A stretch of 64,000 bases of DNA from Pseudomonadota bacterium (lineage in GTDB: Bacteria > Desulfobacterota > Binatia > Binatales > Binataceae), in NCBI GenBank assembly GCA_021325355.1, contig JAJPHI010000009.1, positions 124,001-188,000 of the forward strand, in the 5' to 3' direction. Each line of letters opens with the position of its first letter. Position 1 is the first letter of the stretch. The notes under the pieces are model-generated. The model saw nothing but the letters and a program-made list of their open reading frames with translations, did not search any database and had not been told where the DNA came from. Both the position numbers and the translations under genes were made by a program. Of the stretch, positions 1-61,348 are shown one piece after another.

Positions 1-1031
1 CGCTGGTGGCGCTGCTCAGCGTGATCGTCGTGATGGACGGGCTCATCTGGCAGCCGTTGGCGGCGTGGGCGGAGAAGTTCCGCTACGAATTCGCCGCGTC
101 ATCCGAGTCGACGCCATCGTTCGGCCTGTTCAACTTTCTGCGGGGGATCGGACCGATGGTGGTGCGCGGCGTGCGGACGCTGGCGGCGCCGCTTTTTGTC
201 TGGATGCGGGAACGGCTGCGGACGCGGGCGCCCTTCAATCCGGCGACCTATCCGCGGCTCGCGAAGAGCGGGCAATGGGCGCGGATCACGTTGACCGCCC
301 TGCTGATCGCGTGGTGCGCGTATGCGCTGGTCTCGGGTGGGGCGGCGCTCATCCGCACGTTGGCCCATCCATGGCCCGCGGCGGCGTGGCAAATTCCGGC
401 GGCGACGCTGGCTTCGATGCTGCGGCTGATGGTGGCATACCTGATCTCGCTCTGCTGGACGCTGCCGTGCGCGGTGTATGCCAACGAAAATCCGCGCTTC
501 GGCCAGCGCCTGGCCTCGATCGCGCAGATCCTCGGAGCGGTGCCGGCGACCGCCCTGTTTCCGGTTATCGTGGTGTTCGTGGTCCGCGTGACGGGCGGGA
601 TGAACCTCGCCTCGATCCTGCTCATCCTGACCGGGATGCAATGGTATCTGCTGTTCAATCTGCTGGCGGGGGTGAATCAGATTCCGGCCGATCTGAAAGA
701 GGCGGTGCGGGCCTTCGGTCTCAGTCGGGCGGCGTCGTGGCGCAAGCTGACCCTGCCGGCGGTGGCGCCGTCGCTGCTGACGGGCAGTATCACGGCGTGG
801 GGCGGCGGCTGGAACGCCCTGATTCTGTCCGAATACTTTGTCTTTGGCGGAACGACCTACAAGGTCTTTGGCCTGGGGATGATGCTGGATGAGGCGGTCT
901 ATCAGAGCAACAGCTCGCTGATGATCCTGCTGACGCTGCTCGCGATGGTGCTGACGGTTATCCTGCTCAACCGCTTTGTGTGGCGGCGGCTCTACGATAT
1001 CGCGACCGAGCGTTATCGAATCGACTATTAG
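1..1031 (+). CDS. ABC transporter permease, NitT/TauT-like (5' end outside window)
   Basis: Inner-membrane permease of an ABC importer of the nitrate/sulfonate/taurine superfamily. The reading frame is open from the window edge, so the true start lies upstream. The first 25 visible residues look like the tail of an earlier permease module; after a hydrophilic linker a second module with about six membrane segments runs from about residue 92 to 330. The cytoplasmic EAA loop that contacts the ATPase is visible as EAVRAFGLSRAASWRKLTLP. Two permease modules in one chain are known in this superfamily, so this is probably the C-terminal half of a fused permease. The substrate cannot be told; the cobalamin genes immediately downstream are not proof of a link. 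Confidence 0.8.
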   Translation, partial: LVALLSVIVVMDGLIWQPLAAWAEKFRYEFAASSESTPSFGLFNFLRGIGPMVVRGVRTLAAPLFVWMRERLRTRAPFNPATYPRLAKSGQWARITLTALLIAWCAYALVSGGAALIRTLAHPWPAAAWQIPAATLASMLRLMVAYLISLCWTLPCAVYANENPRFGQRLASIAQILGAVPATALFPVIVVFVVRVTGGMNLASILLILTGMQWYLLFNLLAGVNQIPADLKEAVRAFGLSRAASWRKLTLPAVAPSLLTGSITAWGGGWNALILSEYFVFGGTTYKVFGLGMMLDEAVYQSNSSLMILLTLLAMVLTVILLNRFVWRRLYDIATERYRIDY

Positions 1032-1119
1032 CCCGCGGCGATCGGCGGTCGCGCGGCGCCTCCGGTGGGGGGTCGGGCGGCTTGTGCCGGATGCGCGCCG
1101 ATGGCAGGCTCGGACTGCC

Positions 1120-2184
1120 GTGGAGACGCTCGAAGAGACCCGCGCACGGATCGGCACGCCCGATCGTGAGGCCGAACGCGCCGCAGCGCTGCGCCTCGAT
1201 ACGCTGACCAAGCCGCAGGGGAGTCTCGGCCGGCTCGAGGAAATCGTCGCGCGCTACGCCGCAATCCGCGGCGATGGCGGGACGCGGATGGGCCGCGGCG
1301 CCCTTCTCGTGTACGTGGCCGATCACGGCGTGGCCGACGCCGGCGTGAGCGCCTACCCGCAAGCGGTAACGGTCGAGATGCTGCGCAATATCGGCGCGGG
1401 CGGGGCCGCGATAAGCGTGCTCGCGCGGCGCTTCGGCTACGAGCTGGTGGTCACCGACGTCGGCGTCGCGACCGACACGTCGGCGCGGCCGTTCGCCGGG
1501 GTGCGTTATCGGCGGATCGCCGCCGGCACGCGCAACATGCTCGAAGAACCAGCGCTGAGCGAGGCCGAGGCGCGCGCCGCGCTGGCCGTCGGCATCGAGC
1601 AGGCGGAGGAAGCGGCGCGCCGCGGCGTGACGCTGCTCGGAATCGGCGAGATGGGAATCGGCAACAGCACTGCCGCGGCGGCGCTGCTGGCGGCGCTGAC
1701 TGGTATCGCACCGGCGCGACTGATCGGTCGCGGTACGGGCATCGACGACGCCGGGCTCGTGCGGAAGGTGAATGCCGTCGAGGCGGCGCTCGGGCGTCAT
1801 CGCGAACATCTGGGTAATCCATTGGGAGCGCTGGCGGCGGTTGGCGGTCTCGAGCTGGCGGCGATGGCTGGCGCGTGCCTGGGCGGAGCGGCGGCGCGGG
1901 TGCCGGTAGTGGTCGATGGGTTTATCGCCACGGCGGCGGCGGCCACGGCGATAGGGATCGCGCCGCGCGTCGCCGATTTCCTGTTTTTTGCCCATCGCTC
2001 GGCCGAGGGTGGACATGGGCTCGCACTCGAAGCGCTGAGGGTCCGCCCGCTGCTCGATCTGGGCATGCGTTTGGGCGAAGGCACAGGGGCGGCGCTGGCC
2101 ATGAATCTCGTCGAGAGCGCGCTCGCGCTGTTCCATCAGATGGCGACCTTTGCGAGCGCCGGGGTTTCGGAGAAGATCGGATGA
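1120..2184 (+). CDS. cobT: Nicotinate-nucleotide--dimethylbenzimidazole phosphoribosyltransferase
   Basis: CobT moves phosphoribose from nicotinate mononucleotide to 5,6-dimethylbenzimidazole, giving alpha-ribazole phosphate for the lower ligand of cobalamin. The protein is about 354 residues, the usual length. Family hallmarks are visible: LTKPQGSLGRLE near the N-terminus, the VADHGVADAGVSAYP segment, LLGIGEMGIGNSTAAAAL, and the C-terminal SAEGGHG followed by PLLDLGMRLGEGTGAAL. The GTG at 1120 is chosen because it gives the family length; an in-frame GTG at 1084 is possible. The stop overlaps the ATG of cobS, so the two are translationally coupled. Cytosolic. Confidence 0.95.
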   Translation: METLEETRARIGTPDREAERAAALRLDTLTKPQGSLGRLEEIVARYAAIRGDGGTRMGRGALLVYVADHGVADAGVSAYPQAVTVEMLRNIGAGGAAISVLARRFGYELVVTDVGVATDTSARPFAGVRYRRIAAGTRNMLEEPALSEAEARAALAVGIEQAEEAARRGVTLLGIGEMGIGNSTAAAALLAALTGIAPARLIGRGTGIDDAGLVRKVNAVEAALGRHREHLGNPLGALAAVGGLELAAMAGACLGGAAARVPVVVDGFIATAAAATAIGIAPRVADFLFFAHRSAEGGHGLALEALRVRPLLDLGMRLGEGTGAALAMNLVESALALFHQMATFASAGVSEKIG

Positions 2185-2957
2185 AGCGAAGGGCGGCGGA
2201 GGGCGCCGCCGCAGCGCTTCAGCGAATCGTCGAGCGGATGCGCCTGGCCGCGGCGTTTCTCACGATTTTCCCAACGCTCGACAAGCGGCCGCGCGCGAGC
2301 ACGGAGGTGGCGGCGTCGTTCGGCTGGTTTCCGCTTATCGGTTTCGCGATCGGCGGCGCGGTCGCGCTCGGCGATTGGATGCTGACGCGCGTAATGGCGG
2401 CATCGCTGCGATCGCTTATCGCGGTGGCGGCGCTGGCGCTGATGAGCGGCGGGATCCATCTCGATGGCCTGGCTGACACCGCCGATGCGTTAGCGGCCGG
2501 AAGCGAGCGAGCACGCGCGCTGGCTATCATGCGCGACAGTCGGATCGGCACGTTCGGGGCGCTCGCGCTGATTTTCACAATCGCGCTGAAGGTTGCGGCG
2601 CTCGCCGGGCTGCGCGGCAGTCGGCGCCGGGCAATTCTAATCCTGGCGCCGGGCTGGGCGCGCTGGGCGATGGTCGCGGTGGCGCAGGGAATGAACTATC
2701 TGCGCGATGAAGGCGCGGGAACGGCGTTGCTGCAGCGGAACGACCGGGGAGTGCTGCTGGTCGCCTCGTCGATTGCGCTGATCGGCACGTTGGCGCTCGG
2801 CAAGTGGGTCGGGCTGGCGGCGCCGGTCGCGGCGATCGCGGCGACGGCGCTGTTGCGCGGTTGGTATCGGCGATGGCTCGGCGGCGTGACCGGCGACATG
2901 CTGGGGGCGGCCGGCGAAATCGTCGAAAGCGTGGTGATGCTGGCGGCGGTCAGATGA
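2181..2957 (+). CDS. cobS: Adenosylcobinamide-GDP ribazoletransferase (cobalamin synthase)
   Basis: CobS joins adenosylcobinamide-GDP to alpha-ribazole (or its phosphate), the last assembly step of cobalamin, at the inner membrane. The 258-residue protein is polytopic and carries the signature GGIHLDGLADTADAL, then RDSRIGTFG and the C-terminal GGVTGDMLGAAGEIVE, all typical of the family. The start ATG at 2181 overlaps the cobT stop as ATGA. CobU/CobP and CobC are not in the window, so this is a two-gene fragment of nucleotide-loop assembly. Confidence 0.95.
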   Translation: MKRRAAEGAAAALQRIVERMRLAAAFLTIFPTLDKRPRASTEVAASFGWFPLIGFAIGGAVALGDWMLTRVMAASLRSLIAVAALALMSGGIHLDGLADTADALAAGSERARALAIMRDSRIGTFGALALIFTIALKVAALAGLRGSRRRAILILAPGWARWAMVAVAQGMNYLRDEGAGTALLQRNDRGVLLVASSIALIGTLALGKWVGLAAPVAAIAATALLRGWYRRWLGGVTGDMLGAAGEIVESVVMLAAVR

Positions 2958-3039
2958 AGCGCGACGGATGCGCGCGAGATGGCTCTGCGCTACAATAGGG
3001 ACACTTGATGGGTTCGGTTGCAAACACCGGAGGATCCTG

Positions 3040-3417
3040 ATGGCAGCGGAAGTGCTCAGCAGTGAAACAGCGGCGACTCAGGACGAGACGCCTTCAATCA
3101 GACTTACCCCGAAGGCCGCGGAAAAGGTGCGCCAGATGGCGCAGCATGAAGGTCTCGGCGCCGACCAGGGGTTGCGCGTCGCGGTGGTCGGCGGCGGCTG
3201 CTCGGGTTTCCAGTATGCGTTGAGCTTTGATCAGCGGAAAGACGGCGATATCGTGACGGATTTCGACGGTTTCCGGGTACTGGTCGAGCCGACCGCCCTG
3301 CCCTATATCGCCGGCACCACGCTCGACTACGTCGAGGGTCTCCATAACGCCGGGTTCCGCTTCGACAATCCGCGGGCGTCGCGGACCTGCGGCTGCGGAT
3401 CCTCGTTCAACGTTTAG
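3040..3417 (+). CDS. erpA: A-type iron-sulfur carrier (ErpA/IscA family)
   Basis: A-type carriers deliver Fe-S clusters to apo-enzymes. The 125-residue protein has a 20-residue variable N-terminus, then the HesB/IscA fold with the three ligand cysteines: Cys54 in GGGCSGF and Cys117 and Cys119 in the terminal CGCGSSF. The start ATG is preceded by a good ribosome site (GGAGG, 3029-3033). A TACAAT at 2991-2996 could be a -10 element, but I see no convincing -35. ErpA, IscA and SufA cannot be separated safely from sequence; the symbol is a best guess from the DYVEGL and C-terminal region. Confidence 0.85.
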   Translation: MAAEVLSSETAATQDETPSIRLTPKAAEKVRQMAQHEGLGADQGLRVAVVGGGCSGFQYALSFDQRKDGDIVTDFDGFRVLVEPTALPYIAGTTLDYVEGLHNAGFRFDNPRASRTCGCGSSFNV

Positions 3418-3471
3418 TCTTTTCGGTTGCGCGCGGAGAGCGACTCGGCTCGAGCGGCGGACTGCGGCGCG

Positions 3472-4218
3472 GTGAACGATCTCGCGGGCAAGAGTGTGAT
3501 CGTCACCGGCGCGACGCGGGGGATTGGCCGCGCGATCGCGCTCGAGGCAGCACGGCGCGGCGCCAACGTCGCGTTCAACTACGTGCGAAGCGTCGAGGCG
3601 GCGGCGACGCTGCGGAATGAACTCGAGGCGCTGGGCGCGCGCGCGCTGGCGTTTCAGGCCGATGTCGGCGATCTCAAGAGCGCGCGCGAAATGGTCAACG
3701 CGGTCAAGAAGGAGTTCGGCGCGATCGACGGGCTCGTCAACAACGCTGGGGTGACCCGCGACAAGCTGCTGGTGATGATGACCGCGGAGGACTGGGACGA
3801 AGTTATCCGCACCAATCTGACCGGCGCCTTCAACTTCGCGCGCGCCGCCGCCTTTATCATGATGAAGGCGAAGCACGGATCGATCGTGAACGTCACGTCG
3901 ATCAGTGGACTTATCGGGATGGCCGGGCAGGTCAATTATTCGGCGTCCAAGGCCGGGCTTATCGGCATGACCAAGGCGATGGCCAAGGAGCTTGGGCGGA
4001 CGGGCGTGCGCGTGAATGCGCTGGCGCTCGGCTTCGTCGAGACAGATATGACGGCCGCATTGACGGCAGAGCATCGGGCGGCGGCGCTGGAGATGATCGC
4101 TTTGCGACGGTTCGGGAAAGTCGAAGATGTGGCGCCGATGGCGGTGTTCCTGTTGAGCGATATGGCCGCCTATATCACCGGCACGGTCATCCAGGTGGAT
4201 GGCGGACTGGCGATGTGA
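3472..4218 (+). CDS. fabG: 3-oxoacyl-ACP reductase-like SDR (FabG family)
   Basis: Classical short-chain dehydrogenase of 248 residues, most likely a NADPH-dependent 3-oxoacyl-ACP or 3-oxoacyl-CoA reductase. Visible parts: the TGATRGIG nucleotide loop (residues 12-19), NNAG (90-93), and the catalytic set Ser143, Tyr156, Lys160 in NYSASKAG. The C-terminal VIQVDGGLAM is typical of FabG. GTG 3472 starts the protein right at the Rossmann fold; there is no strong ribosome site. It stands alone, without acpP, fabD or fabF, so a role in the main fatty-acid cycle is not certain. Confidence 0.85.
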   Translation: MNDLAGKSVIVTGATRGIGRAIALEAARRGANVAFNYVRSVEAAATLRNELEALGARALAFQADVGDLKSAREMVNAVKKEFGAIDGLVNNAGVTRDKLLVMMTAEDWDEVIRTNLTGAFNFARAAAFIMMKAKHGSIVNVTSISGLIGMAGQVNYSASKAGLIGMTKAMAKELGRTGVRVNALALGFVETDMTAALTAEHRAAALEMIALRRFGKVEDVAPMAVFLLSDMAAYITGTVIQVDGGLAM

Positions 4219-4248
4219 ACAATCGGCGGCGCCGCCAAGCATTAGCGG

Positions 4249-4277
4249 TTGACCCAATTTTGGGGCGTTACGATAAT
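4249..4277 (+). promoter_or_regulatory. Sigma70-type promoter upstream of the LeuA-domain gene
   Basis: TTGACC (4249-4254), a 17-bp spacer and GATAAT (4272-4277). This is the best match to the sigma70 consensus I found in the window. Expected transcription start near 4284, only about 11 bases before the GTG at 4295. Confidence 0.7.
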
Positions 4278-4294
4278 CAGATGGGAAGCGAGCC

Positions 4295-4807
4295 GTGCCG
4301 CAGACTGAATCGATCTTTTGCGAAACAGAAGCGCCTCAGGCCTCGCGCGAGCTGGCGGAGCTGCGCACTTCAATCGACTATGAACCACCGTTCGAGGTGG
4401 TGCGCCGGCGGGTGATCGACGATTTTCACGACGGCCGGATGACGATTGATGCGACGGTGGTAATCCGGATCGGCGACGTTGAAGTGACCGAGGCGGCGAG
4501 CGGGGTGGGTGTGGTCAACGCCTTCGACAACGCTCTGCGCAAGGCGCTGCTGAAGCACTTTCCATTCCTCGAAGCGGTCCGTGTGACCGAAACGTACGCG
4601 CACGCCAGCGGGGAGTCGACCGAGGCGGAGGTTATGTCGGTCAAGAAATTCTCTGACGGCCGGCTGAACTGGACCACGCTGGCCAAATCGACCAACCTGG
4701 TCGAGGCGGGATGGCTCTCGCTGGTGGACGGTTACGAGTGGCGGATCGTGCAGGAGCGCATCCGGCAGCGCCGGCAGATAAGCAATCCGCGGCTCTCCCG
4801 CCGCTAG
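4295..4807 (+). CDS. Stand-alone LeuA/CimA-type regulatory (allosteric) domain protein
   Basis: A 170-residue protein that looks like the C-terminal LeuA dimer domain of citramalate or 2-isopropylmalate synthase without the catalytic TIM barrel. From about residue 50 the pattern matches the CimA C-terminus: DATVVIRIGDVEVTEAASGV, VNAFDNALRKALLKHFP, then a second unit with LNWTTLAKSTNLVEAGWLSL and VDGYEW. In known enzymes this domain binds leucine or isoleucine and confers feedback inhibition. No synthase gene is adjacent. It may be an amino-acid sensor or a trans-acting subunit; that is inference. GTG start is close to a near-consensus promoter; a weak GGGAAG lies 7 bases upstream. Confidence 0.75.
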   Translation: MPQTESIFCETEAPQASRELAELRTSIDYEPPFEVVRRRVIDDFHDGRMTIDATVVIRIGDVEVTEAASGVGVVNAFDNALRKALLKHFPFLEAVRVTETYAHASGESTEAEVMSVKKFSDGRLNWTTLAKSTNLVEAGWLSLVDGYEWRIVQERIRQRRQISNPRLSRR

Positions 4808-4825
4808 CGCATCGATATCAATCAT

Positions 4826-4865
4826 TGACCGGCGCAACGATAAGACTGACCGGCGCAACGATAAG
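4826..4865 (+). repeat. Tandem pair of 19-bp direct repeats
   Basis: TGACCGGCGCAACGATAAG occurs at 4826-4844 and again at 4847-4865, a 21-bp period (two helical turns). The pair sits just upstream of the GTG at 4880, so it may be an operator or a local duplication of a promoter part (each copy ends in GATAAG). Confidence 0.75.
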
Positions 4866-4879
4866 CGGTTGAAGAGCGC

Positions 4880-5371
4880 GTGCGACCCTTGCGGACACTG
4901 GCGGCGTTAGCAATTCTAGCACTCGGGCTGACCTGGGGCGTTCACTTCGCCTGCGCCGGCGACGACGGTGGGGGATCCGGCGCGGTACCGAATGCCGGCA
5001 GCTACGACGACAGCCTGACGGTCGGTGGTCCGAGTATCCCGGATGCGGACGCGCGGAAGATGAGCGACGCCGAAATCAACGCGATGCTCGCGCGCCTGCG
5101 CAATGGAGATGCAGACGGTCCGCAGATTCAGCCGCACACGCCGCAGGCGACCCAGACGATCGCCGAGCTGCGGCGCGCGTCGAAGCTCGATCGCCTCAAC
5201 GCGCAGAGCTATCGCGGCGGCGAATACAACAAGGCGGCAACCTACCTGACGGACAAGGCCAACAGCGCGGATGAACTGGCGGCGAAGCTGTCCAGCGGAC
5301 AGGCGGTCGCCGAAGCCGACGTCAAGAAGGCGTTGGACACCAGTCGGCTGGTCGGGCTCGGCGGTTACTGA
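4880..5371 (+). CDS. Exported protein of unknown function
   Basis: A 163-residue protein I do not recognise. Residues 1-26 form a signal peptide (positively charged start, hydrophobic core LAALAILALGL, likely cleavage after HFACA). The mature part begins with a Gly-rich stretch and has a low-complexity, Ala/Asp-rich helical body with repeated leucine spacing (IAELRRASKLDRLNAQ; SADELAAKLSSGQAV). There is one cysteine, inside the signal peptide. The GTG start follows a pair of 19-bp direct repeats. Likely periplasmic; no function can be assigned. Confidence 0.65.
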   Translation: MRPLRTLAALAILALGLTWGVHFACAGDDGGGSGAVPNAGSYDDSLTVGGPSIPDADARKMSDAEINAMLARLRNGDADGPQIQPHTPQATQTIAELRRASKLDRLNAQSYRGGEYNKAATYLTDKANSADELAAKLSSGQAVAEADVKKALDTSRLVGLGGY

Positions 5372-5442
5372 TCAAATTGCCGGTGAGCGGCCGTGAAATC
5401 GCGGCGGTGCGCCACGGCCGATCGCGGACCCTGTGCGGGCGG

Positions 5443-55335: not shown

Positions 55336-57771
55336 ATGCCGTCCGCGCGGTCCGCAGCCTCCGCCGCTTCGCTCGCCGACGAAATCGACCTGAATCCGCA
55401 GATTGTGGACCGCCAGGAGTTGACGCGGTCGCCCGATGCGACCGTCGTCGCGTATTACGTGATGACGCGGGAGGCTGGGCGCGCCTGGTCCGCCGTTAAC
55501 CATCTGTCAAGCGGCGCCCGCGGCGGCGTCGTCTGGATCGGCGGCGCCGCCGGCAGCGGCAAGACGCACTTCCTTAACTATACGGTCGCGCTGAGCGCCC
55601 GGGCCGGATCGCCCGACGCGACCGGCGGCCGCCATCTGACGGTCGCCGTCGTTCTGAAGCGGACGCGCGACCTCGGCGCCGATCTCGCCGAAGGGATCGC
55701 GCGGGAGCTTGACGCCGGCCGCGCGGCGGCCAATCTCTGGCGGCACTTGAGCGGTGTCGACGCCCTGCGCGTGGTGCTTGGCCAGACGCGGCGCCTTGGC
55801 GTCAGCAGCCTGACTCTGGTCGTCGATTGCGGAACGCTCGATGTCGCGCCGCTGGCCGCACAATTCGCGGCGGTCAACGAGCTGCTGATCAACGCGACCG
55901 CACCGAAGATTGTGGTCGTGGCGGCCGGTCGGTCAGCCGGCGTCGCGGCATCGATTCCCGCCTTCGCGCTCGACCCTCCGGGCGAAGAGGAAAGCGCGGT
56001 GATCATCGGACACGCGCGCCGCCTCAAACGGATCCCTGCGCGCCCGCTCGAGCAGTTGTACCGGGGAACCGGCTTGAGCGAAGCCAGGATGGCCGCAATC
56101 TGGCCGTTTCAGCCCGCCGCCGCCGCGCTTCTGCCCGAGTTTGACGGCACGCCGCGGCGCATTCCCGTATGTGCACGCATCGCCCGCGACGCGATCGCGG
56201 CATGGCGCGAAGCGCCGGAGAAGCTGATCGCATCCGCCGACATTCTCCGTCTGCCATCAGCGCAAAACGCCCTGCAGGAACGCCTGTCGGCGAGCGAAGG
56301 CAACGCCTTCAGGATCGCGCAAAGGGCGGCGCTGACGATGGATCCGCAGGATGCCGAGCCGAGCTCCGCAATTGTCGCAGTGCTCGCGCTGAAGCATCTC
56401 GCGGCACCGCGCCAAGCGCTAAGTCTCGCGACGCTGCATGAGCATCTGCGGGGCCGCGCGCCGACGCCGCTCAGCGGCGCGGAGCACGCCGAGCTTGCGC
56501 GGATCGTCGCCGACCTCGCGACGCGTTCCCACGCAACCATCTTCTATAGTGCGAGTGAGCGGAGCGCGCGCTTCAATCCCGAGGCGGCCGCGGCGCCGCA
56601 AATCGCCGCGTTTAATCGCGCCCTGCCGTTGCTCCGCTACTTCCGCGCGGATCTCGCAGAAGTCGCGCTTCCGAGCGAGCTTGCCGCAGCTCTCGAACGC
56701 GCGCGCGAGGCGATGGCGTTCGTGCTCGAAGAGGCCGAGCGCAGCCGCAAGATACTGCGCGAGGCTGCTCATGACTTCGGCACGACGCTCGCGCCGGAGC
56801 GTGAACGAACGCTCGCCGACGTAATCGAGATTGCACGCCGGGGACCCGAGGGCGTGCCAGCCGGTACTATCGCGGAGGGAGCGGAACGCAGCCTGCGGGA
56901 ATACGCCACGATCGCGGCGATCGCCGCCGCGGTGCCGCGCCTGCGTGCGATGCGTGAGTATCTGTGCGACCTCGGCCTGATCGAGCCGCGCGACGATCCC
57001 GGGCAATCGGACGCGATCGCGCGCCTGGAATCGGAGTGCAAACTGCTGATCGTCGATATCGGGGGCGCGCTGCATGCTCGCTCGAGCGCGGCTCTGGACG
57101 CCCTCGAGTCGCGCTTCCAACGCTTCAAATGGACCTATGTTCCGATCTACCGCGCGGCCCATCAGGCGTGGCAAAAGGACATGGAACAGGCGGTCAATCT
57201 CGCGACCGACGCCCGCCAATACGTCGCCGCGCTTGAGCGACTTAATACGATAGGCGCCCTTGGCGCGCCACTGGCGGTCGAGCTGAGGCGGGAACTCACG
57301 GAGGCGACGCCGCAGCTCAGATCCTGTGACCCGGAGACGGCGCTCGCCCCGGAAGTGACCCCGCGATGTCCCCGCTGTCATTTCGTCCTCGGGACCGTCG
57401 CGCCGATCGAGGCTTTGGCCGCTATCGTCGACCGCGCCCGGCGCGCGCTCGACGAAAAACTCCGACTACTCTCGCAGAGCGCGGTGATACGTCTTATCCG
57501 CGATCATGACCGTGGGCGGCGTCTCGAAGGGTTTCTCAAGATCACGCAGGCGGCGCAGGCGGATGCGATCATCAAGGTGCTGGATGACGAACTGACCGAG
57601 TATCTGGCGTCGCTGCTCGAAGAAAATCGCGCCGCGCCGCCGACGGCTCAGCGCAGCGACGAACCGGCAGTGGCCGAGGCATCCGCGTCAAAAGTCCGCT
57701 CCAAACCGCCGCGCTCTCGCGCGACCGTAAGCCCGCTCCTGCCGGCGGGCGGCCGAGCGAAGACGCGGTAA
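55336..57771 (+). CDS. Orphan large P-loop ATPase with C-terminal Cys pair
   Basis: 811 residues; family not recognised with certainty. Residues 60-200 form a P-loop core: Walker A GGAAGSGKTHF (Lys76), a likely Walker B SLTLVVDCG (Asp164) and a sensor-like PKIVVVAAGRS. A long helical middle (about 240-660) contains coiled-coil-prone stretches (EEAERSRKILREAAHDFG). Cys678 and Cys681 (RCPRCHF) could be half of a zinc site. The tail is Lys/Arg/Pro-rich. P-loop near the N-terminus, helical body and late CPxC recall BREX BrxC/PglY and DUF6079 ATPases, but no methylase, PglZ or helicase is near. Codon use matches the neighbours. ATG 55336; AAGGAG lies 25 bases upstream, too far. Confidence 0.6.
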   Translation: MPSARSAASAASLADEIDLNPQIVDRQELTRSPDATVVAYYVMTREAGRAWSAVNHLSSGARGGVVWIGGAAGSGKTHFLNYTVALSARAGSPDATGGRHLTVAVVLKRTRDLGADLAEGIARELDAGRAAANLWRHLSGVDALRVVLGQTRRLGVSSLTLVVDCGTLDVAPLAAQFAAVNELLINATAPKIVVVAAGRSAGVAASIPAFALDPPGEEESAVIIGHARRLKRIPARPLEQLYRGTGLSEARMAAIWPFQPAAAALLPEFDGTPRRIPVCARIARDAIAAWREAPEKLIASADILRLPSAQNALQERLSASEGNAFRIAQRAALTMDPQDAEPSSAIVAVLALKHLAAPRQALSLATLHEHLRGRAPTPLSGAEHAELARIVADLATRSHATIFYSASERSARFNPEAAAAPQIAAFNRALPLLRYFRADLAEVALPSELAAALERAREAMAFVLEEAERSRKILREAAHDFGTTLAPERERTLADVIEIARRGPEGVPAGTIAEGAERSLREYATIAAIAAAVPRLRAMREYLCDLGLIEPRDDPGQSDAIARLESECKLLIVDIGGALHARSSAALDALESRFQRFKWTYVPIYRAAHQAWQKDMEQAVNLATDARQYVAALERLNTIGALGAPLAVELRRELTEATPQLRSCDPETALAPEVTPRCPRCHFVLGTVAPIEALAAIVDRARRALDEKLRLLSQSAVIRLIRDHDRGRRLEGFLKITQAAQADAIIKVLDDELTEYLASLLEENRAAPPTAQRSDEPAVAEASASKVRSKPPRSRATVSPLLPAGGRAKTR

Positions 57772-57782
57772 TCCGTCGACGT

Positions 57783-58043
57783 TTAGCCGGTTCGATCACC
57801 GGCCGCGCGGCGCAGCCGCCGCGGCGCAACGCCCGGAGGAAAGGCGCTCGCGCGGCGCCGTCGCGGTTTGATATTGAGGCGATCGAGCAGACGAAAGAAC
57901 CGATTGCGAATGATCTCGAGTCCCCAGAGCAGGGCCAGGCCGACCGTGACCCCGATCGCCTGGATAAGCTCCATAAAAAAATCACGCCAGCCAAGCTTTT
58001 CGACTTCAAACGGCGCTTCTGTAGGCTCTAGCTGCTGAGACAT
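57783..58043 (-). CDS. Small single-pass membrane protein, unknown
   Basis: 86 residues: an acidic N-terminus (QLEPTEAPFEVEK), one hydrophobic helix (about 24-43; ELIQAIGVTVGLALLWGLEI) and a strongly basic C-terminal tail (RRRRAS, RRLRRAAGDR). By the positive-inside rule the tail is cytosolic. No family recognised. Its stop lies 11 bases from the end of the converging ATPase gene. Coding status is supported by the sensible topology and upstream placement relative to nothing else; moderate confidence only. Confidence 0.55.
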   Translation of the reverse strand: MSQQLEPTEAPFEVEKLGWRDFFMELIQAIGVTVGLALLWGLEIIRNRFFRLLDRLNIKPRRRRASAFPPGVAPRRLRRAAGDRTG

Positions 58044-58129: not shown

Positions 58130-59842
58130 TTAGGCTCGCGACAGCGAACTTTTGGGGTTGAGATTCTGGATATGACCGCTCTCGGTTCCGGCCGTCGGAT
58201 CAATCACGCAGTTGATCAGCGCCGGCCGGCGGGAGGCGAGAGCTTCATCGAGCGCGCTCTTGAGACTCCCCGGATCGGTCGCGTGATAACCGGTCCCACC
58301 AAAAGCCTCGATTAGCTTATCGTAGCGAGCATCACTGGTCAGGGCCGTGGGAGCCGGATCGGGACCACCGCCACGGTTCAGTTCGTCGCCGCGATAGATG
58401 CCGCCGTTGTTGAACACCGCGACAACGACCGGCAGACGGTAGCGGCAGACGGTTTCGATTTCCATCCCGCTGAAGCCGAAGGCGCTGTCGCCCTCGATAG
58501 CGATAACCGGTTGGCCGCTCGTCACGGCGGCGCCGATCGCGTAACCCATCCCGATTCCCATCACGCCCCAGGTGCCGCTATCGAGGCGATGGCGCGGGGC
58601 GTACATATCGATAACGTTGCGAGCGATATCGAGAGTATTGGCACCCTCGTTGACCAGATAGATGTCTGGGCGTTCGGCGAGAACGTCACGGAAGACGCGC
58701 AAGGCGCTGTGAAAGTCCATCGGCGACGGATTGGCGGCGAGCCGCGCCTGCATTCTATCGAGATTGGTTCTTTTGCGCTCGGCAATCGCCGCGAGCCACG
58801 TCGAGGCCGGTGTGACCCCCGCGGATTTGAGTTCTTCGAGCAGCGCCGGGACGGCGGCCGCGATATCGCCGACGATCGGCGCCGCTATAGGCCGGTTGCT
58901 GTCCATCTCGACCGGCTCGATGTCAAGTTGAATAAATTTGGCGGTCGGCGACCATTGCGGCGCTTGCCCATGACCGAGGAGCCAGTTGAGCCGCGCCCCG
59001 ACGAGCATCACGACGTCGGCCTGACTGAGCGCGAACGATCGCGCCGCCGCCGCCGACAGCGGGTGATTGTCCGGCAGCAGTCCTTTCGCCATCGACATCG
59101 GCAGGTAGGGAATGCCGGTGGCTTCGATCAGTGCGCGCAACTGCGCGTCGGCCTGAGCGTAGGCCGCGCCCTTTCCCAGGATAATCAGCGGACGCGCCGC
59201 GGTGGCGAGGAGGCTCGCGGCGCGCCTGAGCGCTTCCGCCGAGGGACGCTGCGGGGAAGCCGGATCGATCACCCGCACCAGCGATTGCGCCGCCGTCTGC
59301 GCGTCGACGCTGGCGCTGAGCGTCGCGGCCGGCAGATCGAGATAGACCCCGCCCGGACGGCCCGACAGCGCCGCGCGGATCGCGCGGGCGACGCCCACAC
59401 CGATATCGGCCGCGCGATTCACGCGGAAGGCCGCCTTGGCGTACGGCCGCGCCGCATTCAACTGATCGAGTTCTTCGTAATCGCCCTGCTGCAGGTCAAC
59501 GATCGCACGGTCGCTGGATCCGCTAATCTGGATCATCGGAAAGGCATTGACCGTGGCATTGGCGAGGGCGACCATCCCGTTCAAAAAACCGGGAGCGGAG
59601 ACCGTCAGGCAGACCCCGGGGCGGCGCGTCAGGTAGCCGCTGATGCCGGCGGCATAGCCGGCCGACTGTTCGTGACGGAAGCCGATGTAGCGCATCCCGG
59701 CAGCCTGCGCGAGGCGCGTCAGATCGGTAATGGGAATGCCTGCAACGCCGTAAAGCGTGTCTATACCGTTGGCTTTCAGAGCCTCGATGACGAGATGGAA
59801 TCCGTCGGTTGCGGCTCCTGTCGGCCTGTCTGCTTCTTTCAT
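58130..59842 (-). CDS. oxc: Oxalyl-CoA decarboxylase
   Basis: Thiamine-diphosphate enzyme that turns oxalyl-CoA into formyl-CoA and CO2. The 570-residue sequence matches Oxalobacter/E. coli Oxc closely: DTLYGVAGIPITDLTRLAQA, GFRHEQSAGYAAG (catalytic Glu58), VSAPGFLNGMVALANATVNA, MIQISGSSDR, VDLQQGDYEELDQLN, GKGAAYAQAD, LPMSMAKGLLPD and the TPP/Mg site EGDSAFGFSGMEIETVCRY with NNGGIY. Its ATG lies six bases after the stop of the oxalate-CoA ligase gene, forming a two-gene operon. ADP stimulation is known in the family. Confidence 0.96.
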   Translation of the reverse strand: MKEADRPTGAATDGFHLVIEALKANGIDTLYGVAGIPITDLTRLAQAAGMRYIGFRHEQSAGYAAGISGYLTRRPGVCLTVSAPGFLNGMVALANATVNAFPMIQISGSSDRAIVDLQQGDYEELDQLNAARPYAKAAFRVNRAADIGVGVARAIRAALSGRPGGVYLDLPAATLSASVDAQTAAQSLVRVIDPASPQRPSAEALRRAASLLATAARPLIILGKGAAYAQADAQLRALIEATGIPYLPMSMAKGLLPDNHPLSAAAARSFALSQADVVMLVGARLNWLLGHGQAPQWSPTAKFIQLDIEPVEMDSNRPIAAPIVGDIAAAVPALLEELKSAGVTPASTWLAAIAERKRTNLDRMQARLAANPSPMDFHSALRVFRDVLAERPDIYLVNEGANTLDIARNVIDMYAPRHRLDSGTWGVMGIGMGYAIGAAVTSGQPVIAIEGDSAFGFSGMEIETVCRYRLPVVVAVFNNGGIYRGDELNRGGGPDPAPTALTSDARYDKLIEAFGGTGYHATDPGSLKSALDEALASRRPALINCVIDPTAGTESGHIQNLNPKSSLSRA

Positions 59843-59848
59843 CGGTGA

Positions 59849-61348
59849 CTATCCGGCGGCCCTGAACATCGCGGCGACGTCGCGGCGGACGACTTTTCCT
59901 GTGGCGTTGCGCGGTAACGCGGCGACGAAACGAATTTCCACGGGTACTTTGAAATCGGCCAGATACTCCCGGCAAAGGCGCTTCAGTCGCGCGGCGTCGG
60001 TGTCGCCCTTGAGCACCACCGCCGCCCATACGACTTCGCCGTACTTGGGATCCGGCATCCCGAACACCGAGGCCTCGGCGACGGCCGAATCGCGGAGCAG
60101 CGTGGCCTCGATTTCGTTGGGCGCGATCTTTTCCCCGCCGCGGTTGATCAACTCCTTGAGGCGGCCGGTCAGGGTCAGATAGCCGTCCGCGTCGCAGACG
60201 CCCATGTCGCCGCTGCGAAACCAGCCGTCCATGAAAGCCTCGAGATTGGCCCGCGGATTGTCGCGATATCCGGTCATCACCTTGGGCCCGCGCACGATCA
60301 CTTCGCCGGCCTGATTTGCCCCAAGACGCTTGCCGGTCGGGTCGATAATGGCGATTTCGACCCCGGTGGGAAGCCCGACGCTGCCCGGCTTATGGGGACG
60401 CGGCGGCAGCGGATTGGAGGCGGCCTGATGGGTGGTTTCGGTCATCCCGTAGGCCTCGATAACCGGCGCGCCGAAGCGTTCCTCGAGCTTGCCGAGCACT
60501 GCCGGCGCAAGCGACGCCGAGCATGAACGAATGAAGCGCGGGCCATGATATGGCGCACCGTCACCGTCGGCGCGCGCGAGCAGCACCAGATGGATCGTCG
60601 GGACCGCGGTGTACCAGGTGGCGCCATACGCCTGAAAGGCGCTCCAGAAGCTCGCGGCGGAGAACCGCGGCGGCACGATCAGCGTCCCGCCGGAGGACAG
60701 CGTCGAGAGCGCGGCCCCGATCAGCCCGTGCCCGTGGAACAACGGCATCACCAGCAGGGTGCGGTCGGCGGGACTCAGGGCGTAGTGGGCGGCGATATCA
60801 AGGGCGGAGGCCAGGAGATTCGCCTGGGTCAGCGGCACCATCTTCGGGCGGCCGGTACTGCCGCTCGTCTGCAGGAGCAGCGCCGCCTGATCGGCGGCTG
60901 GTGGGGGCGGAGCGCCAAGCGACCGCGGCGTCGCTCCGTCCAGCGTGACCGCGCCGCGCGCGTCCAGTTCCGGAGACCATAGCTGGACGCCGAGCTCGCG
61001 CGCCGCCTCCGCAGCCGTCGCATCACCGGCGCGCGCGAGGAGTGCGCGCGCGCGATTATCCATCAGCGAGGCTTTCAGCTCCTCGACCCGAAAAGCCGGG
61101 TTAAGGGGAGCGACGGTGATACCGAGCCGCGTGAGCGCCAGAAATAGCTCGATAAACTCGAGGCTGTTGGGCAAAAACATCGCCGCGCAATCGCCCGGCC
61201 GCAAGCCGCGCGCCGCCAACTCGGCGGCCAATCGTTCGCTCGCCTCCGCGAGGTCGCGGTAGGTAATGGAGAGCGCGGGCTCGAGCGAAATGATCGCCGG
61301 TTCGGCACTCCGCGGGTCGTCAATCAGCTTTGCCAACGTGTCGCGCAT
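59849..61348 (-). CDS. Oxalate--CoA ligase (AAE3-like acyl-CoA synthetase)
   Basis: 499-residue AMP-forming synthetase. The P-loop is TSGSTGRPKMVPLT; then LFHGHGL, TWYTAVPTIHLVLL, RFIRSCSASLAP, EAYGMTETTHQAASNPLPP, GWFRSGDMG, GRLKELINRGGEKIAPNEIE and the catalytic Lys in RNATGKVVRR. Several of these (ATWYTAVPTIH, SCSASLAP, THQAASNPLPP) are nearly those of plant AAE3 and yeast Pcs60, which activate oxalate to oxalyl-CoA. The tight linkage with oxc makes oxalate the most likely substrate. ATG 61348; upstream promoter not obvious. Confidence 0.9.
   Translation of the reverse strand: MRDTLAKLIDDPRSAEPAIISLEPALSITYRDLAEASERLAAELAARGLRPGDCAAMFLPNSLEFIELFLALTRLGITVAPLNPAFRVEELKASLMDNRARALLARAGDATAAEAARELGVQLWSPELDARGAVTLDGATPRSLGAPPPPAADQAALLLQTSGSTGRPKMVPLTQANLLASALDIAAHYALSPADRTLLVMPLFHGHGLIGAALSTLSSGGTLIVPPRFSAASFWSAFQAYGATWYTAVPTIHLVLLARADGDGAPYHGPRFIRSCSASLAPAVLGKLEERFGAPVIEAYGMTETTHQAASNPLPPRPHKPGSVGLPTGVEIAIIDPTGKRLGANQAGEVIVRGPKVMTGYRDNPRANLEAFMDGWFRSGDMGVCDADGYLTLTGRLKELINRGGEKIAPNEIEATLLRDSAVAEASVFGMPDPKYGEVVWAAVVLKGDTDAARLKRLCREYLADFKVPVEIRFVAALPRNATGKVVRRDVAAMFRAAG

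What the first reader, a model, noticed from the sequence alone, without database searches (positions are those of the whole stretch)
55336..57771. Orphan 811-residue P-loop ATPase of unclear family
It has a convincing Walker A (GGAAGSGKTHF, Lys76) and Walker B-like strand, a long helical body, a CPRC pair at 678-681 and a basic tail. The layout (N-terminal ATPase, late CPxC) recalls BREX BrxC/PglY and DUF6079 ATPases, but there is no PglX, PglZ, BrxL or helicase nearby, only a converging single-pass membrane protein 11 bases away. It could be a solitary defence or stress ATPase. This is my best candidate for something undescribed.
Basis: partly seen in the sequence, partly recalled or inferred. 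Interest (0 to 1): 0.62.

Follow-up and report, generated by a model that had tools for sequence, protein, structure and literature searches.

The report
Stripped-down BREX ATPase outside defence
This gene encodes a shortened relative of BrxC, the ATPase at the core of the BREX anti-phage system, which one family of uncultured bacteria (Binataceae) inherits vertically as an ordinary chromosomal gene without the BREX partners, so it looks like a defence part that was given another job.

Summary
The ORF is real: 811 aa at 55336-57771, with Walker A, a CPRC pair and a converging membrane gene 11 bases away. It is not an orphan of unclear family but a shortened BrxC (DUF6079). Its AlphaFold model matches Acinetobacter BrxC 2-552 best of the solved structures compared (Z 18.9; next ORC/Cdc6, 13.4). 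Its C-terminal third is homologous to the BrxC coiled-coil, three-Cys and dimerisation region (hhalign E 2.5e-17). The DNA-binding middle of BrxC (alpha+beta domain, second winged helix) is missing. The Walker-B glutamate is Phe, Leu or Cys in all 19 aligned members. The family was found only in Candidatus Binataceae: 30 of 41 genomes, 2 decayed, 8 absent, 1 undetermined. It is under purifying selection and tracks vertical inheritance as PBP3 does. It usually lies beside the mraZ/dcw cluster and always converges on a conserved single-pass membrane gene (27 of 27 testable). PglZ, which BREX needs, is absent from the window genome and from 39 of 41 family genomes; no plasmid or viral homologue was found. 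Likeliest reading: a vertically inherited, BREX-free BrxC that works as an ATP-binding assembly scaffold with little hydrolysis. A solitary defence role is not excluded, but nothing here points to it. Its cellular task is unknown.

The parts
55336..57771 (+). BrxC-derived AAA+ protein, 811 aa, stop included
55369..56259 (+). N-terminal ORC/Cdc6-BrxC-type AAA+ module (about residues 12-308)
   Evidence: AlphaFold model and VIA-align to BrxC 9zll/9zdx over model residues 12-415; boundary to the winged helix read from DSSP, approximate
55540..55572 (+). Walker A GGAAGSGKTHF (residues 69-79, Lys76)
55801..55830 (+). Walker-B strand (residues 156-165): Asp164 invariant, the following catalytic Glu of BrxC replaced by Cys here and by Phe/Leu/Cys in all aligned relatives
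   Evidence: BrxC E269 from PMC13326643
56260..56580 (+). winged-helix domain (about residues 309-415), equivalent to BrxC wHTH1
56581..57315 (+). coiled-coil region (residues 416-660), starting where the BrxC alpha+beta and wHTH2 domains are missing
57325..57378 (+). three-Cys knuckle C664, C678, C681, shared with BrxC/DUF6079
57406..57633 (+). most conserved block (residues 691-766), equivalent to the C-terminal dimerisation region of BrxC
   Evidence: dimerisation function from PMC13326643
57783..58043 (-). converging small single-pass membrane protein (86 aa from the ATG; basic C-terminal tail with an RASAFPPG motif)

Best explanation
It is a BrxC/DUF6079-lineage AAA+ protein that lacks the DNA-binding middle of BrxC (alpha+beta domain and second winged helix) and the Walker-B catalytic glutamate. 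It keeps the ATP-binding AAA+ module with wHTH1 and the C-terminal coiled coil, three-Cys knuckle and dimerisation region. The ancestor of the Binataceae already carried it, and the family inherits it vertically, without BREX, at a chromosomal site that is usually beside the dcw cluster. Most likely mechanism (inferred): a constitutive dimer through its C-terminus whose ATPase heads associate when ATP is bound and separate slowly because hydrolysis is weak or absent, so that it acts as an ATP-gated assembly scaffold rather than as a motor or a DNA-recognising restriction component. The partner is unknown; the best candidate is the adjacent basic-tailed membrane protein. Shown: homology, architecture, absence of the Glu, absence of the middle, vertical inheritance, absence of PglZ, constant pairing of the two genes. 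Inferred: ATP binding, weak hydrolysis, dimerisation, scaffold role, partner.
For: Fold: best solved match is Acinetobacter BrxC (9zll), Z 18.9 over 380 residues (model 12-415), and 17.9 for a second entry (9zdx), against 13.4 for ORC/Cdc6. Sequence: C-terminus to a true BrxC in a sister genome, E 2.5e-17; to a DUF6079 alignment, E 3.9e-12; N-terminus to BrxC, E 1.8e-7; 4 orthologues pass the Pfam DUF6079 cut-off; 13 of 19 hit a PADLOC BrxC model. Missing middle: model residues up to 415 align to BrxC up to 552, and residue 425 already aligns to BrxC 948 of the sister genome. No Walker-B Glu in 19 of 19. BrxC E269Q binds ATP, dimerises and hydrolyses poorly; BrxC 1-551 does not bind DNA; the last 80 residues dimerise (PMC13326643). 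Vertical: pairwise identities follow PBP3 with r 0.91, the same as the PBP3-MraY control, 0.90; present on both sides of the deepest split with several losses; dN/dS 0.20-0.41. Not BREX: PglZ in only 2 of 41 genomes, not in the window's. Neighbours.
Against: No biochemistry. Another acidic residue (invariant Glu218 is a candidate) could replace the missing Glu. Equivalents of the BrxC arginine fingers and sensor 2 could not be placed. The membrane protein also occurs in 10 genomes without an intact ATPase, so the pair is not obligate. Eight genomes lack the gene and two hold decayed fragments, so it is dispensable. Several further genomes show a split or cut frame, which may be assembly artefacts or more decay.
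Confidence: 0.6

Rival explanations
1. Solitary defence ATPase: it still protects against phages, alone or with unlinked partners.
For: BrxC homologues otherwise occur in defence systems (BREX, BREX-related, Dnd/Ssp; PMC13326643, PMC12839542); repeated loss is usual for defence genes.
Against: Mostly fixed site beside dcw genes, vertical inheritance equal to PBP3, no plasmid or viral homologue, no PglZ, loss of the DNA-binding middle and of the catalytic Glu.
Confidence: 0.15
2. Two-gene membrane module: the ATPase binds the basic cytoplasmic tail of the adjacent single-pass protein, and the pair serves the cell envelope or division, in line with the dcw neighbourhood.
For: Adjacent and convergent in 27 of 27 testable genomes; the pair stays together in both genomes of the window's genus although the dcw cluster is elsewhere; the positive C-terminal flank predicts a cytoplasmic tail.
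Against: The membrane protein is in 40 of 41 genomes including the 10 without an intact ATPase, so it does not need it. Convergent genes are not co-transcribed. Conserved synteny with dcw can be passive.
Confidence: 0.2
3. Relic under decay with no present function.
For: Two genomes hold fragments with stops and several more hold split frames; it evolves faster than PBP3 (median identity 0.41 against 0.60).
Against: dN/dS 0.20-0.41 over about 790-818 codons, not far from PBP3 (0.13-0.21); 50 or more invariant positions across 19 members and full length kept in most genomes.
Confidence: 0.05

Closest known systems
BrxC / PglY (DUF6079), core ATPase of BREX
   Same: AAA+ plus wHTH1 fold (Z 18.9 to 9zll), Walker A, coiled coil, three Cys in the same order, homologous C-terminal dimerisation region
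   Different: 811 instead of 1200-1300 aa; no alpha+beta domain or wHTH2; no Walker-B Glu; no PglZ in the genome; vertically inherited
DUF499 ATPases of BREX-related systems
   Same: related N-terminal AAA+ and wHTH (PMC12839542)
   Different: DUF499 ends in wHTH/RRM domains; this ends in the BrxC-type coiled coil and Cys knuckle; no methyltransferase or helicase seen in the neighbourhood
ORC/Cdc6 initiators and STAND NTPases
   Same: same wider AAA+ fold (Z 11-13)
   Different: clearly lower score than BrxC; no shared C-terminal part; no effector domain
SspC of Ssp (phosphorothioate) defence
   Same: weak profile match in 3 of 19 members (best E 5e-4)
   Different: weaker than BrxC (13 of 19, best E 1.1e-6); Ssp partners were not searched for

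Membership tests
BrxC (DUF6079) ATPase | N-terminal BrxC-type AAA+ with Walker A | tested here: met
BrxC (DUF6079) ATPase | Walker-B catalytic Glu (E269 in Acinetobacter BrxC) | tested here: not met
   F/L/C at this column in 19 of 19
BrxC (DUF6079) ATPase | arginine fingers (K326, R330) and sensor 2 (R430) | tested here: inconclusive
   alignment too uncertain in this stretch; conserved Arg199, Arg226 (His here), Arg228, Arg284 are candidates
BrxC (DUF6079) ATPase | wHTH1 after the ATPase | tested here: met
   model aligned to BrxC through residue 415
BrxC (DUF6079) ATPase | central alpha+beta domain and wHTH2 | tested here: not met
   ours passes from the equivalent of BrxC 552 to about 948 within 10 residues; length 811
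BrxC (DUF6079) ATPase | C-terminal coiled coil with terminal subdomain / dimerisation region | tested here: met
   hhalign E 2.5e-17 and 3.9e-12; dimerisation itself not testable here
BrxC (DUF6079) ATPase | Pfam DUF6079 gathering score | tested here: not met
   19.1 against 23 bits for this protein; four orthologues do pass
BREX system | PglZ in the genome | tested here: not met
   none in G000; 2 of 41 family genomes
BREX system | BrxB, BrxX/PglX, BrxA or BrxL next to the ATPase | tested here: not met
   neighbourhoods of the loci examined; judged from gene families and reading, not by separate profile searches
DUF499 / BREX-related | C-terminal wHTH/RRM domains | tested here: not met
   C-terminus is coiled coil plus Cys knuckle, homologous to BrxC

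The most novel reading that the evidence does not exclude
A core BREX ATPase was recruited to a constitutive cellular role: a non-hydrolysing, ATP-gated scaffold that pairs with a basic-tailed membrane protein beside the division/cell-wall cluster and acts in envelope or division control in Binataceae.
Probability: 0.2. Interest if true: 0.75.

Novelty: new variant of a known kind. Interest (0 to 1): 0.47.

Why it matters
In the papers read here BrxC is described only from defence systems. A vertically inherited, BREX-free member that lacks the DNA-binding middle and the catalytic glutamate separates the ATP-driven assembly function of BrxC from its DNA reading and restriction functions. It offers a small natural construct on which to test what the AAA+ module and the C-terminal dimeriser do by themselves. 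It would also be an example of a defence ATPase passing into ordinary cell biology.

Tried and rejected
Plain family scans gave only sub-threshold hits and phmmer against the PDB gave none; these would have left it 'unknown'. PHROGs gave nothing useful. Viral contigs and plasmids gave no homologue, and predicted viral structures gave only general AAA+ matches. The C-terminal part folded alone (pLDDT 84.5) gave no significant PDB match by Foldseek; only N-terminal BrxC constructs are resolved or deposited among the solved entries met here, so this says nothing about novelty. The ATPase as an obligate partner of the membrane protein was rejected: the latter occurs without it. A membrane-gene hit in another family of the class (G093) proved spurious on reading. 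Residue-level placement of arginine fingers and sensor 2 failed. A literature search for DUF6079 and orphan BrxC found no described stand-alone case, within an open-access library only. A plasmid search for more BrxC sequences gave too few.

Full report
Observation. The ORF at 55336-57771 is real and complete: 811 aa, ATG start. Walker A (GGAAGSGKTHF, Lys76), the Walker-B strand ending at Asp164 and the CPRC pair (C678, C681) are present. The converging small gene ends 11 bases downstream. Only the 'basic tail' is incidental: tails of relatives vary from 2 to 50 residues.

Where it is. The window lies in a 3.36 Mb genome (G000:C20:124001-188000). So the organism is a member of Candidatus Binataceae (phylum Binatota; the phylum name is from general knowledge and PMC8262859). 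The class as searched had 148 genomes, 41 of them in this family.

Family. Searching 148 genomes of the class with the alignment gave full members only in this family; a pattern-based scan of 84,980 species genomes gave 24 loci, all attributable to it. Counting the 41 genomes: 30 carry the gene (some cut by contig ends or split by frameshifts), 2 (G020, G029) carry only fragments with stops beside the membrane gene, 8 lack it (6 with the membrane gene still beside the dcw cluster, 2 of genus g5 with the membrane gene elsewhere), and in 1 (G024) the contig ends at the site. No match in viral contigs or plasmids.

What it is. The AlphaFold model (alignment A3, pLDDT 82) has an AAA+ domain, a winged helix, a long coiled coil, a Cys knuckle and a returning helix. 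Foldseek alone ranks ORC/Cdc6 proteins first, but VIA-align on its candidates puts Acinetobacter BrxC clearly on top: 9zll Z 18.9, rmsd 4.0, 380 residues, model 12-415 on BrxC 2-552; 9zdx 17.9; next 13.4. The C-terminal third is homologous in sequence to a genuine BrxC found in a sister genome beside genes that read like BrxB and BrxA (G021, L050): hhalign E 2.5e-17 over our 425-770 and BrxC 948-1294, and E 3.9e-12 to a DUF6079 alignment (which includes that BrxC as one of four). The three Cys match in order and nearly in spacing (C664-C678-C681; C1088-C1102-C1105 in the first member of that alignment). A profile of the N-terminus also hits BrxC (E 1.8e-7 for a single comparison). Four orthologues pass the Pfam cut-off for DUF6079; this one does not.

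What it lacks. BrxC is 1200-1300 aa with an alpha+beta domain and a second wHTH between the AAA+/wHTH1 part and the coiled coil (PMC12839542; PMC13326643). Ours goes from the equivalent of BrxC 552 (residue 415) to about 948 (residue 425), so that middle is missing. In BrxC this region is needed for DNA binding: the 1-551 construct does not shift DNA. The Walker-B Glu, E269 in BrxC, is Phe, Leu or Cys in all 19 aligned members while the preceding Asp is invariant. The E269Q mutant of BrxC binds ATP, dimerises and hydrolyses poorly; by analogy, and only by analogy, this family may sit naturally near that state.

Not a BREX part. PglZ (PF08665) is absent from the window genome and from 39 of 41 family genomes; one of the two exceptions, G021, holds a real BrxC as well as our gene. 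No BREX neighbour was seen at the loci examined.

How it is inherited. In most genomes the gene lies between acyl-CoA dehydrogenase/CaiB-type genes and mraZ-rsmH-ftsL-ftsI-murE-mraY (gene names by reading the translations). Genomes without it mostly keep the flanks and the membrane gene. Its pairwise identities track PBP3 with r 0.91, the same as PBP3 with MraY (0.90). On a PBP3+MurE tree it is present on both sides of the deepest split, with about five separate losses among sampled genomes (midpoint-rooted FastTree, some weak nodes). dN/dS is 0.20-0.41 in seven close pairs, against 0.13-0.21 for PBP3.

The neighbour. The converging 86-aa protein has one hydrophobic helix, an invariant Trp and Glu, and a basic C-terminal tail with an RASAFPPG motif. 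It is in 40 of 41 genomes, including those that lack the ATPase, and is adjacent and convergent to the ATPase in all 27 genomes where both lie on one contig (counted from the coordinates). In the window's genus the pair stands apart from the dcw cluster, which is on contig C13 in G000 and C47 in G001, and the pair has different surroundings in the two genomes. So the pair tends to stay together, but only the membrane gene is near-universal.

Reading. The identity and the history are well supported. The mechanism, an ATP-gated, poorly hydrolysing assembly scaffold, rests on transfer from BrxC biochemistry to a protein that keeps the modules concerned. Its cellular task is open; an envelope or division role with the membrane protein is a guess from synteny, and solitary defence a weaker one. 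In the papers searched nobody describes a stand-alone BrxC of this kind, within an open-access library.

Noticed in passing
L050 (G021:C5) 111-5415, minus strand; L121 and L135 (G021:C13): A sister Binataceae genome holds a BrxC (1323 aa) next to genes that read like BrxB and BrxA, plus another DUF6079-like ORF and PglZ on a second contig: BREX parts in the same genome as the shortened BrxC.
   Followed up: partly
family genomes: Genomes that lack the ATPase are larger (median about 4.65 Mb against 3.6 Mb; Mann-Whitney p 5e-4), but the comparison is not corrected for relatedness.
   Followed up: no
window 57783-58043 and homologues in 40 of 41 genomes: A small single-pass membrane protein family with a conserved RASAFPPG tail, usually beside mraZ/rsmH; no significant Pfam or PHROGs match.
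   Followed up: partly
window 58130-61348, minus strand: ThDP-dependent decarboxylase (570 aa, reads like oxalyl-CoA decarboxylase) and an acyl-CoA ligase (499 aa) 6 bases apart: perhaps an oxalate catabolism operon. Named by reading, not by a search.
   Followed up: no
loci with gene family F8, e.g. L041, L042, L045: A 260-330 aa gene, secreted or lipoprotein-like by reading, of unknown function lies between the membrane gene and mraZ in about half of the genomes.
   Followed up: no
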